A stretch of 64,000 nucleotides of DNA from Chitinophagaceae bacterium (GTDB lineage: Bacteria > Bacteroidota > Bacteroidia > Chitinophagales > UBA10324). Position 1 is the first letter of the stretch. Each line of letters opens with the position of its first letter. This document shows, piece by piece, positions 2,266 to 9,951 of the stretch. The stretch lies in contig CANIPU010000004.1 of NCBI GenBank assembly GCA_947469485.1, positions 91,537 to 155,536 of the forward strand, read 5' to 3'. The notes under the pieces are model-generated. The model had not been told where the DNA came from, searched no databases, and worked only from the letters and a program-made list of their open reading frames with translations. The translations under genes were made by a program, and so were the position numbers.

Positions 2266-3069
2266 TTACCTGGGTTCTTCTTCATCGCCTGGGGTGTCCA
2301 GCTTAAACTGATCCAGAGTAATGTATACATCCACCGCTTCTCCAAGATTTAATTTATTATCAGTATCGAGTATCGAAGGAGTTTGCTTGTAAACAATAGC
2401 ATTCAAGGAATCACCTCGAACAGTATTGTCAGCTATAACCGCTCCCAGGTTCAGAGAGGATGCATCCAAAATAAATTTCACTTCGCGCAGTGTATGACCA
2501 ATCAGTTCGGGTACTTCCACTTCAGTATTTCCTAATCCGTCACCTAAAATCAAATCAATGGTTGAGCCTTTTTTTATTTTATTCCCTGCATTTATATGGC
2601 GGCCTCTTACCATCCAGTCAAGCACCACATTCTGGGCTAAGTCTGGTTTGTAAATTAACTGACCAACCCTTAACCCAATGTTTTCTAATATCATTTGAGC
2701 CTGCTTTAATGAATTATCAGTAAGATCAGGCATTTTAACTTGTGGTGGAATGATTGCATTTACTGTGAGGTAAATAGTTCTTCCTTCCTTCACTTTTGAA
2801 TTGGCAACAGGGATTTGTTCAAGAACTGCGAGCTTCGGTTTCTTATCATTGAAAGATGAATCAGCAATGGCAATTTCTAAATTCCGGTCACTCAAAACTT
2901 GCTTGGCTTTTTCAAAAGTCATTCCTGTTAAATCCGGAACAGTAACTGTTTCACCGTGCTTGGTGTAAGAATTCAGTGCCGATGTACCTAGCCAAAATAC
3001 GATTATGAACATGGCGATGGCCCCAAGTATGTTATAAAGAAAAATTCTGCTTTTAAGAAATTGCCACAT
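2266..3069 (-). CDS. Single-pass membrane protein with three PASTA domains
   Basis: 267 residues. One membrane helix (about residues 10-30) is followed by three PASTA modules at roughly 39-105, 106-178 and 179-253, each opening with a V-P-x-L or M-P-D-L motif. PASTA domains in other bacteria bind peptidoglycan fragments or beta-lactams. The usual kinase or transpeptidase domain is absent, so this is a stand-alone sensor or adaptor facing the periplasm. It starts one base after the stop of the double D-Ala-D-Ala ligase gene and is almost certainly co-transcribed with it. That supports a role in cell-wall synthesis, though its exact job is inferred from context. Confidence 0.88.
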   Translation of the reverse strand: MWQFLKSRIFLYNILGAIAMFIIVFWLGTSALNSYTKHGETVTVPDLTGMTFEKAKQVLSDRNLEIAIADSSFNDKKPKLAVLEQIPVANSKVKEGRTIYLTVNAIIPPQVKMPDLTDNSLKQAQMILENIGLRVGQLIYKPDLAQNVVLDWMVRGRHINAGNKIKKGSTIDLILGDGLGNTEVEVPELIGHTLREVKFILDASSLNLGAVIADNTVRGDSLNAIVYKQTPSILDTDNKLNLGEAVDVYITLDQFKLDTPGDEEEPR

Positions 3070-3070
3070 A

Positions 3071-5764
3071 TTATGTAGTAATAGTAGTATGTTGATTTCG
3101 GCGGCTAAATTCTAAAATTTTATCGATAAAGTCGTAAGGCTTATAATGATTGATGGCTGCCTGGTGAAAAATACAGGTGGCTGGGGTCATACCGGGAAGG
3201 GAATTCACTTCAATTACGACCGTTTCGGCATTGTTATTTGCATCAATGCGCACAAATGCATCAATACGGCAGTAGCCCTGCACATTTAAAAGTCGCGCTG
3301 CTTTTTCCAGATCTGTTTTTACCTGCTTTGCAATTTTTGTGTATTCTTCTTTTGATTTTCCGAATCGTGCCGGAGTAATGTTTTGTCCTTCGCCTGCTAA
3401 AAATTTTTCTTCGAGCGAAAGCACATCAGCAGTGGCGAGTGTTTCGCTTGGTTCAAATACTTCGTAGGAAATTGTTCCGTCATCGTTGTGATGAGTAAGC
3501 ATTCCGCAAGTGATTTCTAAAAAATGTTTTGCCCCATTAGCAGCAATTAAATCTTCTACTAAAAATTGTTCTTTGCGCGGAAACTCTTCTTTCGGTTTTA
3601 GGTGAAGTGTAGCAGCTTCGTTTGAATTCAGTAATTCCTGCTCACGAAACATGAGGCGACTGAATGCGATTAACTCGTCACGCGTTTTTATCTTTTTTAC
3701 AGCACTGCTGCAACCATCATCCACCGGTTTGGTGATGATTGGTAATTTATGTTTGTCGAGAATAGTATCAGTAAATTTTTCTTCGCTCGCGCTCCAATCT
3801 TTTTTATAAACCAACGATTGTTGCGCTTCATGAAAACCATGCTGTAACAGTAATTGGTTGGTGTTAAATTTATTTATGGTGATTTGCGAAGAAGAAACTC
3901 CACTGCCGTTGTAAGGCAAACCAACTTTTTCTAAGTGCTGCTGGACACTACCATCTTCGCCAGGACGACCATGAAGTGCTATGAAAACTCCTTCCACTTC
4001 ATTGGGTAATTCAGAATAGGAAAGCTTTTTCGGAACAAATAAATAGTTGCTGGAAGAAAATTTTTGTGTAATGTTTTTACACTGCTCTTTAATTTTTTCA
4101 ATTACAGGATGAAAGCCGAAGTGTTTTATCTTTTCGCGAATGTCATCGGCATTATCTTTCAGTAAAAGGTTAATCGGAATCTGGTAAAGTTCGTGTTGCT
4201 CATTGCTGCCGGTGAGAAAAACAGGAATGGGCTGGTACTTATCGGAGCTGGCGAGCTTCTCAAAAATATTTCTTCCGCTCTCGACGCTGATGTGTCGTTC
4301 GGTGGAGTACCCGCCGAGAATAACTGCAATGCATATTTTGTTTTCAGCGTGTTGCAGTAGTTTATCAATTCCATTATTAAGCCGTTGTAAGAGTGGTTCG
4401 TAAACAGCAGGGCGAACATTGGTGCGCATTCGCTCGCGCACACTGGTGTGTATGATGAACGAAAGAAACTGCGAAGGATTTAACCCAATCTCTGCTGCCT
4501 GATGAAAGAAGAACGAAGACGGCAACATTCCGCTTGTCGTGTTCGGATCGTTGAGAATAATTTTTCCATCTGTTCGAATGAAACCATCAATACGGGCATA
4601 AACATGAAACCCAAAAAAGTTAAAAAGTTTTTCGCACTCCCGGCGAATGGCTTCAATTTGGTCATCAGGAATTTGTATCGGTGTGATTTTTCGAGAAAGC
4701 CCTGCGAGGTATTTTGAGCGGTAATCAAAAACTTCTTTTCCTTTTACAATTTCAGTGGGCGGAAGAGCAACAGGATTATTTTTTTCATCAACAATCACGA
4801 TGCACGAAAATTCTTTTCCTTCAATAAATTCTTCAATCAGAATTTCAATTTCAGCATCATAAGCTTCAAGAATTAATTGTGAAATATTTTCCGCTGAAGA
4901 TTTTTCAAACAACTGAAATAATTCTTCAGGATGAAAATATGTTTTTCCATTAATGCGCAATGGCAAACCGACATTTTCCCTGATGTCGCATAGGTTATTT
5001 AAGAAAGTGATTTTTTCTTCATCATTTTTCTTTTCCCAATCAGCAGATTTCCATTCGAAAAAGAAAAATGCTTTATCAATTGCTTTCGTAATTGCTTCAA
5101 CATCTTTTTCGTGAATGATGGAAACACCAATTGAAGAACCCTGATTAGCAGGGCGAATAACCAAGGGCAATCCAACCGCTGTAACACTTTTTTCGATTAG
5201 GGAATTTTTATCGACACTAAGCCACTCGTCCCGCGTAACAGTTTTGAAGCGGGTAGGAGCAAAACCGCCTTCGTTCATCATCCGTTTCTGAAATGCTTTG
5301 TTGATACCAATAGCGGATGGAAGAATGCCGGAACCGGAATATGGTATCTGATAAAAATCAAGAATGCCTTGTATACTTCCGTCCTCGCCATACGAACCGT
5401 GCAGTGCAAGAAAAGCAAAATCAATAATTGAACTGAGTTCGTTCGGAAGAATTTTTTTTCCTACTGTTGAAATAATTTCATCTTGTTTTTCGCGAGGCAA
5501 TTTCCCTAACGATTCAATATATACTTGGAAGGGATGTGTGGTAGTTGGAATAAAATTGACTGAAGGATAAAAATCGCGAATGCTTCCTTTATAAATGTAT
5601 TGCCAGTCGAGCAGAATCAGATTGTGAAAACTGTCAATAAAAATTGGAACAGGTTCGAAAATGGATTTATTAAGATTGTCGTAAACTGTTCTCCCACCGG
5701 CAAATGATATTTCGCGCTCGCGTGAGCTGCCGCCAAAAAAAATTCCGATTCTGATTTTATTCAT
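3071..5764 (-). CDS. Tandem (double) D-alanine--D-alanine ligase-like protein
   Basis: 897 residues, more than twice the usual ~300-370 of Ddl. Two complete ATP-grasp Ddl modules lie head to tail, residues 1-~470 and ~474-890. Each has its own N-terminal 'GG-x-S-x-E' loop (GGSSRERE; GGYSTERH) and 'LHG..GEDGS' motif. The C-terminal module ends with the canonical 'EVNSLPGMT' metal-binding segment. The N-terminal module has 'NDPNTTSGML' instead, so its metal/substrate site differs. The expected reaction is ATP-dependent D-Ala-D-Ala formation for peptidoglycan; whether both halves are active is unknown. I see no stop or frameshift at the junction, so the fusion looks genuine. The PASTA protein gene follows directly. 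Confidence 0.9.
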   Translation of the reverse strand: MNKIRIGIFFGGSSREREISFAGGRTVYDNLNKSIFEPVPIFIDSFHNLILLDWQYIYKGSIRDFYPSVNFIPTTTHPFQVYIESLGKLPREKQDEIISTVGKKILPNELSSIIDFAFLALHGSYGEDGSIQGILDFYQIPYSGSGILPSAIGINKAFQKRMMNEGGFAPTRFKTVTRDEWLSVDKNSLIEKSVTAVGLPLVIRPANQGSSIGVSIIHEKDVEAITKAIDKAFFFFEWKSADWEKKNDEEKITFLNNLCDIRENVGLPLRINGKTYFHPEELFQLFEKSSAENISQLILEAYDAEIEILIEEFIEGKEFSCIVIVDEKNNPVALPPTEIVKGKEVFDYRSKYLAGLSRKITPIQIPDDQIEAIRRECEKLFNFFGFHVYARIDGFIRTDGKIILNDPNTTSGMLPSSFFFHQAAEIGLNPSQFLSFIIHTSVRERMRTNVRPAVYEPLLQRLNNGIDKLLQHAENKICIAVILGGYSTERHISVESGRNIFEKLASSDKYQPIPVFLTGSNEQHELYQIPINLLLKDNADDIREKIKHFGFHPVIEKIKEQCKNITQKFSSSNYLFVPKKLSYSELPNEVEGVFIALHGRPGEDGSVQQHLEKVGLPYNGSGVSSSQITINKFNTNQLLLQHGFHEAQQSLVYKKDWSASEEKFTDTILDKHKLPIITKPVDDGCSSAVKKIKTRDELIAFSRLMFREQELLNSNEAATLHLKPKEEFPRKEQFLVEDLIAANGAKHFLEITCGMLTHHNDDGTISYEVFEPSETLATADVLSLEEKFLAGEGQNITPARFGKSKEEYTKIAKQVKTDLEKAARLLNVQGYCRIDAFVRIDANNNAETVVIEVNSLPGMTPATCIFHQAAINHYKPYDFIDKILEFSRRNQHTTITT

Positions 5765-6977: not shown

Positions 6978-7107
6978 TTGTTATTGGGTGAAATTACAGG
7001 AGCAAAATTATCCAGTCAGGCAATATCTGCTAAACAGTTTTTAAACCTATTTCAACATGCAATTTGAAAGTGAAATGAATTATTTTAGCGCTCCAATAAA
7101 TAATAAC

Positions 7108-9951
7108 ATGAAGAAAATAATTTTTGGTACTTCGATTTTGCTTTTTGCTTTTTCGTTCTTCACTTTTGCTCAGACATATCAAACTAACGGAAGCTGCGTT
7201 CAGGTAACTCCTAGAACTTTCCGGTTAACTGATTCTACGGGGCTTGTTGGAGGAAATTTTTTTTCAACAACTCAATTAGACCTCAATAATGCTTTTGATA
7301 TCAACTTTTTCATCGACTTGGGGTGTATTGATGCTTTGGGTGCAGATGGTATAGCTTTTATTTTACAAAATTCAACTTTTGGAGCATCAGCATTAGGTGG
7401 GATAGGTGCAGGTATGGGTTATACTGGAAGTTCAATAATTACTCCTTCATTGGCTGTAGAGTTTGATACAAATCCAAATACATTTGAAGGGTATCCTGAC
7501 CCAACTTATGACCACATAGCTATAATTAAAAATGGCGACTTAACCGTTAACCAATCTGGACCAGTTCAAGTTTCAGCAACTCAGGCTAATGTTGAAGATT
7601 GTGTTTGTCACAAAGGAAGAATACAATGGAATCCGTCGCTTAATAGACTAAGAGTTTATTTTGATGGTACCTTAAGACTTACATATTTTAGTAATATTAT
7701 AACAAATTATTTTGGGGGCAATCCTTTGGTTTACTGGGGTTTTGGGGGTGGAACTGGTGCTTATTATAATATTCAAACGGTGAGCATAGATTTTGCTGAT
7801 GCCGGAGCAAATCTTTCAGTATGTCAAGGTTCAGGAGTTCAATTGAATGGAACCGGAGGTGCCACTTATTCCTGGTCGCCTACAACTGGTTTGTCAAATG
7901 CAACAATTGCAAACCCAATTGCTTCACCAACTATCAACACAACTTATACATTAACAGCTTCAAATCTTTCAGGTTGTTCTGATACTTCAATTGTGAAAAT
8001 TACAGTGAATCCTCTACCAACTGCAAATGCAGGTTCGGATGTATTTATTTGTCCGGGGGCTTCATCTTTTTTAAGCGGTTCTGGAACTGGCAGTTCTTAT
8101 TTATGGTCTCCATCAAGTGGATTAAATAATAACACTATTCTATCTCCAACTGCTTCCCCAAATGAAACAACAACTTATACTTTAACTGTTAATTCTTCCT
8201 TAGGATGCACAGCAAGTGACCAGGTTGTTGTAAATGTTTACGCAGCACCAAGTGTAAATGCCGGACCAAGTCAAAATGTATGTCAAGGAAATTCAGTTCA
8301 ACTTAATGCTTCTGGAGGATTGACTTATTCATGGTCACCAACTATTGGGTTAAATAATTCTACAATTAATAATCCAACTGCCAATGTTCTAATAAACACT
8401 ACCTATACTGTTTCAATTACTGATTTAAATGGATGCTCTGGAAATGATACAGTTTCAATACATATTTTACCCCCAATAACAGTTAGTGCAGGAAATAATG
8501 TAACTATTTGTCAGAATGCAGCCACTCAATTAAATGCGAGTGGTGGAGTTACTTATTCTTGGTCTCCGACAATCGGTTTATCAAATGCTGCAATCGCAAA
8601 CCCAATATGTTTTACGGCCGCAACCACCACATACAGTGTTGTTGTAACAAATAATATGGGCTGTACAGGTTCAGCTCAGGTTGTAGTTACAGTTCTTCCT
8701 CCTGTTGCAGCGCCAAGTATTTCTCCATCACAGCCTTCTATCTGTGCAGGTTCATCTATTCAAATAAATGCAAGTGGTTCTATAAATTATAGCTGGTATC
8801 CAAGTACCGGATTAAATACAACAACCGGTTCAACAGTTGTTGCTTCACCAACCATAACTACCAATTATACATTAGCCGGAACAGATGTTAATGGTTGTGT
8901 CGCGAGTTTATTCTTTTCGGTTGTTGTGAATGGTGTGCCTGCAATTTCCACAAGCCAAATTACTGATGCTTTGTGTAGTGGAACAGGGTCAATAAATATT
9001 GGAATGAATACAGGCTCTTATTCATTTGCCTGGAGTACTGGAGCAACTACAGAAGATATCACAGGACTTAATGCAGGAATTTACACTGTTACAATAACCG
9101 ATAATGGTTGTTCTTCTGTTAATACATTTACAGTCGGGCAATCGGCTTTGCAAAAACCACAGAACTTAATAGTTGATAACCTTACTTCTTGCAGCGCAAG
9201 ATTAAACTGGAGTTCAGTATTGAATATGAGTTATTATAAGGTGCGATTCAGACAAACAGGAACTACAGTTTGGTCGGCTTCTGTAAATGTTGGAACTTCA
9301 TTGTTTTATGATTTTACTGGGTTAAGCGCATCTTCAACATATCAATTTCAGGTTTCAGCTTATTGTGCAAATGGCGCAACAGCAGGATGGAGTACAAAAC
9401 AAGTTACCACAAAAGTTTGTACTACACCTGTTAATAGTGCTGTTTCAATTATCAATTCAACTTCTGTTATAGTTTCCTGGACAGCTTTGTGTTCATCAAA
9501 TAGTTTTCAGGTAATTTATAAAAAAGTCGGAACAACTCAATGGTCTCAGGTTTCAACAAGTCTTACAACAGTTACATTGAATAACTTGATGCCTTCAATA
9601 ACTTACGAATATAAAATTAAAGCAGTTTGCACCGGAGCTGCGTCAGCTTATAGTTCTCTATTAAATTTCACTACTCCTTTGATTAAGCAAGAATCGAATT
9701 CTGCAGGAATATTTCAAATGGAGGTATTTCCAAACCCAACTTCAGGTGTTTTTAATGTTGTACTAAATACTCATTCTTTGAATTTTTCATTGGAAGTAAC
9801 AAATTTATTAGGTCAAAAAATATGGATTAATGAATCAAATAATGCAACAGTTCAAATTGATTTAGGAAATCAAATTGTTTCAGGAATTTATTTGCTGATT
9901 TATAAGGATGAGGAAAGATCTGAAACGCGACGCTTGATTATTGATAAATAA
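7108..9951 (+). CDS. Large T9SS adhesin with lectin, Ig/PKD-like and FN3 modules
   Basis: I chose the ATG at 7108 because it begins a standard signal peptide (MKKIIFGTSILLFAFSFF, ending 'TFAQ'); an in-frame ATG 51 bp earlier would add an unlikely extension. The mature protein has an L-type lectin-like domain (~20-235, with 'GADGIAFILQN' and 'LAVEFDTNPN'). About five Ig/PKD-like repeats follow (~230-640), each with 'C-x-G', 'YSWSP..GL' and 'TTYT' signatures. Then come a SprB-like segment, two FN3 domains (~684-770 and 771-855) and a C-terminal T9SS type A tail ('VFPNPTSGVFNV'). It should be a secreted, surface-bound carbohydrate-binding adhesin. The 947-residue length and modular layout are typical of Bacteroidota. 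Confidence 0.85.
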   Translation: MKKIIFGTSILLFAFSFFTFAQTYQTNGSCVQVTPRTFRLTDSTGLVGGNFFSTTQLDLNNAFDINFFIDLGCIDALGADGIAFILQNSTFGASALGGIGAGMGYTGSSIITPSLAVEFDTNPNTFEGYPDPTYDHIAIIKNGDLTVNQSGPVQVSATQANVEDCVCHKGRIQWNPSLNRLRVYFDGTLRLTYFSNIITNYFGGNPLVYWGFGGGTGAYYNIQTVSIDFADAGANLSVCQGSGVQLNGTGGATYSWSPTTGLSNATIANPIASPTINTTYTLTASNLSGCSDTSIVKITVNPLPTANAGSDVFICPGASSFLSGSGTGSSYLWSPSSGLNNNTILSPTASPNETTTYTLTVNSSLGCTASDQVVVNVYAAPSVNAGPSQNVCQGNSVQLNASGGLTYSWSPTIGLNNSTINNPTANVLINTTYTVSITDLNGCSGNDTVSIHILPPITVSAGNNVTICQNAATQLNASGGVTYSWSPTIGLSNAAIANPICFTAATTTYSVVVTNNMGCTGSAQVVVTVLPPVAAPSISPSQPSICAGSSIQINASGSINYSWYPSTGLNTTTGSTVVASPTITTNYTLAGTDVNGCVASLFFSVVVNGVPAISTSQITDALCSGTGSINIGMNTGSYSFAWSTGATTEDITGLNAGIYTVTITDNGCSSVNTFTVGQSALQKPQNLIVDNLTSCSARLNWSSVLNMSYYKVRFRQTGTTVWSASVNVGTSLFYDFTGLSASSTYQFQVSAYCANGATAGWSTKQVTTKVCTTPVNSAVSIINSTSVIVSWTALCSSNSFQVIYKKVGTTQWSQVSTSLTTVTLNNLMPSITYEYKIKAVCTGAASAYSSLLNFTTPLIKQESNSAGIFQMEVFPNPTSGVFNVVLNTHSLNFSLEVTNLLGQKIWINESNNATVQIDLGNQIVSGIYLLIYKDEERSETRRLIIDK

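What the first reader, a model, noticed from the sequence alone, without database searches (positions are those of the whole stretch)
3071..5764. Tandem fusion of two D-Ala-D-Ala ligase modules in one reading frame
Seen: one uninterrupted 897-residue frame with two complete ATP-grasp Ddl modules. The C-terminal one has the canonical E-x-N-x-LPGMT segment. The N-terminal one has N-D-P-N-T-T-S-G instead. Known: Ddl is normally ~300-370 residues and dimeric. Inference: the fused pair may be a covalent dimer in which one half makes D-Ala-D-Ala and the other half has a changed substrate (D-Ala-D-X) or is structural. The direct PASTA-protein neighbour fits a cell-wall role.
Basis: partly seen in the sequence, partly recalled or inferred. 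Interest (0 to 1): 0.62.

Follow-up and report, generated by a model that had tools for sequence, protein, structure and literature searches.

The report
Double D-alanine ligase, one working half
Many environmental Bacteroidota make the essential cell-wall building block D-Ala-D-Ala with a single protein in which two ligase copies are fused end to end; comparison across genomes indicates that the front half does the essential job, while the rear half carries an intact but strictly altered active site of unknown product.

Summary
In detail: window 3071-5764, minus strand, is one 897-aa frame with two full Ddl modules. It is not an assembly join. The architecture recurs in 77 of 159 evenly drawn genomes of the class, and in 52 of 52 double-bearing genomes tested it is the only Ddl. 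The N-module (M1) keeps all D-Ala-D-Ala specificity residues; its 'NDPN' only swaps Mg ligand E270 for D. The C-module (M2) has the canonical Mg loop but is changed at both acceptor-specificity positions (S150 to C, Y216 to F). These states were identical in 107 of 107 doubles. Two natural experiments support M1 as the D-Ala-D-Ala ligase and M2 as accessory. A whole family (40 of 41 genomes) has only M1 plus an M2 remnant. Doubles with decayed active sites occur only where a stand-alone Ddl is also present (3 of 3 against 0 of 11). In Saprospiraceae-type genomes the double is often fused to the membrane PASTA protein. Best reading: one ancient internal duplication gave an asymmetric Ddl, linked to PASTA sensing. 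M2's chemistry (D-Ala-D-X, or regulatory) is unproven. I found no publication describing it.

The parts
3071..5764 (-). tandem Ddl gene, 897 aa plus stop
   Evidence: the only gene of the genome with PF01820
4400..5764 (-). Module 1 (aa 1-455), canonical acceptor site, predicted D-Ala-D-Ala ligase
5132..5140 (-). M1 GSS (aa 209-211), S210 = DdlB S150
   Evidence: S210 invariant in 107/107
4709..4714 (-). M1 omega-loop K351-Y352 = DdlB K215-Y216
4541..4549 (-). M1 D406-P407-N408; D406 replaces Mg ligand E270
   Evidence: 107/107 doubles, 17/17 truncated forms
4340..4411 (-). helical linker between the modules (aa 452-475)
   Evidence: AlphaFold2 model, helix 452-475; coordinates
3074..4339 (-). 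Module 2 (aa 476-897), intact ATP/Mg site, altered acceptor site
3707..3715 (-). M2 GCS (aa 684-686), C685 replaces S150
   Evidence: 107/107; alignment
3401..3406 (-). M2 K787-F788, F788 replaces Y216
   Evidence: 107/107; alignment
3203..3211 (-). M2 E852-V853-N854, canonical Mg ligands E270/N272
2266..3069 (-). membrane-anchored protein with PASTA domains, 267 aa, 1 bp downstream
   Evidence: adjacency in 53 of 77 doubles; fused to the double in Saprospiraceae-type genomes

Best explanation
This is an asymmetric tandem D-Ala-D-Ala ligase produced by one old internal duplication in Bacteroidia. It replaces the ordinary single-module ddl as the cell's only D-Ala-D-Ala source. M1 is the working D-Ala-D-Ala ligase: its acceptor site is canonical and only Mg ligand E270 has become D. 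M2 is an accessory ligase module, covalently held beside M1. Its ATP/Mg machinery is intact, but its acceptor pocket is altered at the two positions that set D-Ala against D-X specificity (S150C, Y216F), resembling lactic-acid-bacterial D-Ala-D-Lac ligases. The gene is functionally tied to a membrane PASTA (peptidoglycan-sensing) protein. Shown here: architecture, conservation, only-Ddl status, duplication, loss patterns and PASTA fusions. Inferred: that M1 makes D-Ala-D-Ala in vivo, that M2 turns over, and that PASTA controls or localises the enzyme.
For: Only Ddl in 52/52 double genomes. Mapped catalytic residues invariant in 107/107 doubles down to 38% identity (M1 K144 is K or R); both modules equally conserved, mean pairwise identity 57% and 59%, 76 and 75 invariant columns. 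Careful tree: M1 + M2 + truncated forms on one side of a branch against singles, support 99/96; truncated forms nest inside M1. Family f30: exactly one PF01820 match in 40/41 genomes, nearly all in frames of 555-677 aa; M1 catalytic residues intact in all 17 truncated forms examined, with M2 cut to an N-domain remnant. In PASTA-fused doubles, 3/3 with decayed sites carry an extra stand-alone Ddl against 0/11 intact ones, p = 0.0027; the two extra Ddls read in full have canonical S150/Y216/E270. 15 of 39 doubles in that family have frames of 1140-1341 aa, with PASTA confirmed by Pfam in all seven scanned. AlphaFold2 model pLDDT 89.1, pTM 0.88; both halves match Ddl structures at Z 32-38, and the top row, on M2, is LmDdl2 D-Ala:D-Lac ligase, tied with others. 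S150 and Y216 as specificity positions: PMC7691350, PMC5996685.
Against: No activity was measured. M1's E270D change is unusual and could slow M1. Family f30 shows that M2's catalytic half can be lost, so it is not essential everywhere. PASTA adjacency also occurs with some single Ddls (L133), so it is not specific to the double. Of the three decayed doubles, L168 keeps most of its M2 site, and its genome's extra Ddl lies on a 4-kb contig that could be contamination.
Confidence: 0.75

Rival explanations
1. M2 is a true D-Ala-D-X ligase (D-lactate or another 2-hydroxy or D-amino acid), so these cells make two kinds of termini from one polypeptide.
For: Both specificity positions changed in all 107 doubles. 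DdlB gained weak depsipeptide activity on S150A and Y216F substitution (PMC7691350), and F against Y sets depsipeptide against dipeptide activity in lactobacilli (PMC5996685). The top structural match, on M2, is LmDdl2 (tied).
Against: M2's catalytic half was lost in a whole family, and its site decayed in two of three genomes with an extra Ddl, so no second product is essential there. No VanH/VanX-type partner was seen next to the window gene. C at position 150 is not a known D-Lac signature.
Confidence: 0.35
2. M2 is a regulatory module that binds ATP and D-Ala and sets M1 activity, turning over slowly or not at all.
For: M2 is covalently fixed to M1. An M2 N-domain remnant persists in f30 after the catalytic part is gone. 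The model predicts a firm overall arrangement (pTM 0.88).
Against: All mapped catalytic residues, including K144, R255, D257, E270 and N272, are strictly kept in M2, more than ligand sensing needs.
Confidence: 0.35
3. Simple covalent dimer: both modules make D-Ala-D-Ala and the fusion only stabilises the dimer.
For: Ddl is normally dimeric (established knowledge). Y216F DdlB was crystallised with ADP and a phosphoryl phosphinate (1iow) and keeps D-Ala-D-Ala activity (own knowledge).
Against: Two separate, invariant sets of substitutions in the halves across 107 doubles point to division of labour, not redundancy.
Confidence: 0.2
4. Assembly or frameshift artefact joining two ddl copies.
For: None found.
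Against: Same frame in dozens of independent assemblies, including large isolate contigs and a 7.5-Mb contig.
Confidence: 0.01

Closest known systems
D-alanine--D-alanine ligase (Ddl; TIGR01205, PF01820+PF07478; E. coli DdlB, PDB 1iow/2dln)
   Same: Both modules have the Ddl fold and catalytic residues; M1 keeps the full D-Ala-D-Ala acceptor triad; same genomic role as the only Ddl.
   Different: Two modules in one chain; M1 has D for E270; M2 has C/F for S150/Y216; long insertions in both.
D-Ala:D-Lac ligase LmDdl2 (Leuconostoc, PDB 1ehi) and lactobacillus F-type Ddl
   Same: M2 has F at the Y216 position and a non-serine at the S150 position; top row of the structural comparison (tied).
   Different: Part of a tandem; C at position 150; product unknown; no resistance cluster seen.
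VanA-type D-Ala:D-Lac ligase
   Same: Same fold and Mg site as M2.
   Different: VanA lacks the K-Y/F of the omega loop (E-V in the alignment); M2 keeps K-F.
Carbamoyl phosphate synthetase large chain (tandem ATP-grasp; own knowledge)
   Same: Internal duplication of an ATP-grasp ligase with diverged halves.
   Different: Different family and chemistry; no evidence of channelling between the halves here.
Bifunctional MurC-Ddl fusion (NF011171)
   Same: Ddl within a cell-wall fusion protein.
   Different: Partner is MurC, not a second Ddl or PASTA.

Membership tests
D-Ala-D-Ala ligase (Ddl), module 1 | Ddl N-domain plus ATP-grasp C-domain | tested here: met
D-Ala-D-Ala ligase (Ddl), module 1 | E15, S150, Y216 acceptor/omega-loop residues | tested here: met
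   E16, S210, Y352 in 107/107
D-Ala-D-Ala ligase (Ddl), module 1 | Mg ligands D257, E270, N272 | tested here: inconclusive
   D393 and N408 kept, E270 is D406 in all; tolerated where M1 is the only Ddl
D-Ala-D-Ala ligase (Ddl), module 1 | ATP-dependent D-Ala-D-Ala formation | not testable with these tools
   inferred from being the only Ddl
Ddl superfamily, module 2 | fold, K144, R255, D257, E270, N272 | tested here: met
D-Ala-D-Ala-only Ddl, module 2 | S150 and Y216 | tested here: not met
   C685 and F788 in 107/107
D-Ala-D-Lac ligase of LmDdl2/lactobacillus type, module 2 | F in place of Y216 | tested here: met
   F788; PMC5996685
D-Ala-D-Lac ligase of LmDdl2/lactobacillus type, module 2 | depsipeptide activity | not testable with these tools
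   needs an enzyme assay
VanA-type ligase, module 2 | VanA-type omega loop without K-Y/F | tested here: not met
   K787-F788 present
PASTA-linked protein | PASTA domain in the same chain or next gene | tested here: met
   next gene in the window; same chain in the seven proteins scanned

The most novel reading that the evidence does not exclude
A widespread two-headed Ddl in which M1 makes D-Ala-D-Ala and M2 makes a different D-Ala-D-X dipeptide or depsipeptide, with output set at the membrane by a PASTA sensor. This would be an undescribed layer of peptidoglycan-terminus control in Gram-negative Bacteroidota.
Probability: 0.25. Interest if true: 0.85.

Novelty: new variant of a known kind. 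Interest (0 to 1): 0.62.

Why it matters
Ddl is an essential, drug-targeted enzyme (D-cycloserine) that is normally described as a single-module homodimer. About half of the evenly drawn genomes of a large bacterial class instead rely on a tandem version with a strictly kept asymmetry, and evolution has already run the deletion series: M2 lost in one family, both sites decayed where another Ddl is present. That makes the role of a second ligase site directly testable. The Ddl-Ddl-membrane-PASTA fusions give a direct genetic link between a PASTA protein and cytoplasmic D-Ala-D-Ala synthesis.

Tried and rejected
Assembly join: rejected. A second single-module ddl in the same genome: not found; the other PF07478 matches are not matched by the Ddl N-domain PF01820. 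VanA-type M2: the omega loop does not fit. A close relative of the Bernardetia form in sampled class genomes at E 1e-140: nothing matched (no positive control; the limit was too strict, since weaker relatives appeared). Relatives of the Bernardetia form in viral contigs: none. Literature: seven searches found no description of a tandem or PASTA-fused Ddl; only open-licence PMC papers were searched, so this is not proof of absence.

Full report
OBSERVATION. The finding lies on the minus strand: 3071-5764 encodes one 897-aa frame. Pfam and NCBIfam see two Ddl modules, and the halves align end to end at 25% identity, E 2e-35. A PASTA protein gene follows after 1 bp (2266-3069). Relatives in the same genus encode the same protein at 88-95% identity.

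NOT AN ARTEFACT. In the search of 40 relatives, 21 genomes (own included) encode the tandem essentially full length and four more show it truncated or split at contig ends. In an even draw over the class, 77 of 159 genomes have it, one copy each apart from three that are split over contigs. A draw over the phylum found it only inside the class. In 52 double-bearing genomes there are exactly two Ddl N-domain matches, and every listed match lies in the one long frame, so the tandem is the only Ddl.

ANATOMY. Mapped on E. coli DdlB, M1 keeps E15, H63, K97, S150, E187, K215, Y216, R255, D257, N272, G276 and S281; K144 is K or R, S151 is S or rarely T, and Mg ligand E270 is D406. M2 keeps E15, H63, K97, K144, S151, K215, R255, D257, E270, N272 and G276, but S150 is C685, Y216 is F788 and S281 is T863. 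Apart from K144 and S151 of M1, these states are identical in 107 of 107 doubles as low as 38% identity to the window protein. The modules are equally conserved (57% and 59% mean identity; 76 and 75 invariant columns). All single Ddls in the comparison set have S150 and E270, and all but VanA have Y216. PMC7691350 states that S150 and Y216 are conserved in Ddls that make only D-Ala-D-Ala, and that replacing them gave DdlB weak D-Ala-D-Lac activity. PMC5996685 states that F against Y at this site sets depsipeptide against dipeptide activity.

STRUCTURE. AlphaFold2 with a 73-row alignment gave pLDDT 89.1 and pTM 0.88. Each half aligns with solved Ddls at Z 32-38. The top row, on M2, is LmDdl2 D-Ala:D-Lac ligase at Z 38.3, tied within 1 unit with D-Ala-D-Ala ligases, so it is only consistent with altered specificity.

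ORIGIN. In the careful tree M1, M2 and the truncated forms lie together on one side of a branch against single Ddls (99/96), M2 is one group (100/100), and M1 is one group once the truncated forms are included (100/99). One old internal duplication before spread through the class is the simplest reading. The branches are long and the root is not inferred.

NATURAL EXPERIMENT 1. Two genomes of family f30 and a Bernardetia plasmid carry M1 followed by a short M2 remnant. In f30, 40 of 41 genomes over some 35 genera have exactly one Ddl N-domain match, nearly all in frames of 555-677 aa. In 17 of 17 truncated proteins examined, all M1 catalytic residues are kept, D406 included, while M2 is reduced to an N-domain remnant without its intact GGxSxE loop and without the ATP-grasp part. 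They nest inside M1, so M2 was lost secondarily. M1 alone is therefore sufficient as the only Ddl, and the E270D change is compatible with function.

NATURAL EXPERIMENT 2. In the family of a Saprospiraceae MAG, 15 of 39 doubles lie in frames of 1140-1341 aa. Seven such proteins scanned all end in PASTA after a hydrophobic, membrane-type segment; one lies on a 7.5-Mb contig. Three of these fusions (L166, L167, L168) have lost Mg ligands or other catalytic residues in M1, and two of them clearly also in M2. Exactly these three genomes have an extra stand-alone Ddl; none of the 11 with intact sites does, p = 0.0027; one of the 11 (G529) has an extra partial tandem-like frame instead. The two extra Ddls read in full are canonical. 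The double is thus kept catalytic only when it is the only Ddl, and the dead fusion is retained, which points to a further non-catalytic role of the Ddl-PASTA chain.

SYNTENY. PASTA lies within 500 bp downstream on the same strand in 53 of 77 doubles with enough sequence (single-query detection, so a lower bound). It also follows some single Ddls, such as L133 with a 1-bp gap, so the link is not specific to the tandem.

MECHANISM. Shown: architecture, conservation, only-Ddl status, loss patterns and fusions. Inferred: M1 makes D-Ala-D-Ala; M2 is catalytically competent with a changed acceptor site, or regulates M1; PASTA localises or tunes the enzyme. I give 0.75 to the core model and about 0.35 each to M2 as D-Ala-D-X ligase and as regulator.

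NOVELTY. The domain family is known and records are named 'D-alanine--D-alanine ligase' (for example the Bernardetia plasmid gene). I found no paper on the tandem, its asymmetry or the PASTA fusion, within the limits of an open-licence library. It is a new variant of a known kind.

Noticed in passing
L055:743-4528, L093, L162-L175 (Saprospiraceae-type genomes): Tandem Ddl further fused through a membrane-type segment to PASTA domains in one chain of about 1180-1290 aa.
   Followed up: partly
L166, L167, L168 (G489, G472, G491): Ddl-Ddl-PASTA proteins with decayed active sites, retained beside a separate stand-alone Ddl: apparent pseudoenzymes.
   Followed up: partly
L216-L231 (family f30) and L120:4998-6869 (Bernardetia plasmid): M1 plus a short M2 remnant as the only Ddl in a whole family; the remnant N-domain is kept.
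   Followed up: yes
L214:656-2170 (G529 contig C311): A second, divergent tandem-like Ddl (partial) in a genome that also has an intact Ddl-Ddl-PASTA fusion; its M2 keeps GCS and KF.
   Followed up: no
window 7057-9951 (+): 964-aa secreted-looking protein with repeated similar stretches and a C-terminal sorting-type tail, next to other such proteins.
   Followed up: no
L030 (G006:C96:7067-9721): The G006 match is reported with one in-frame TAA while its open frame is 887 aa; probably a slightly shorter C-terminus.
   Followed up: no
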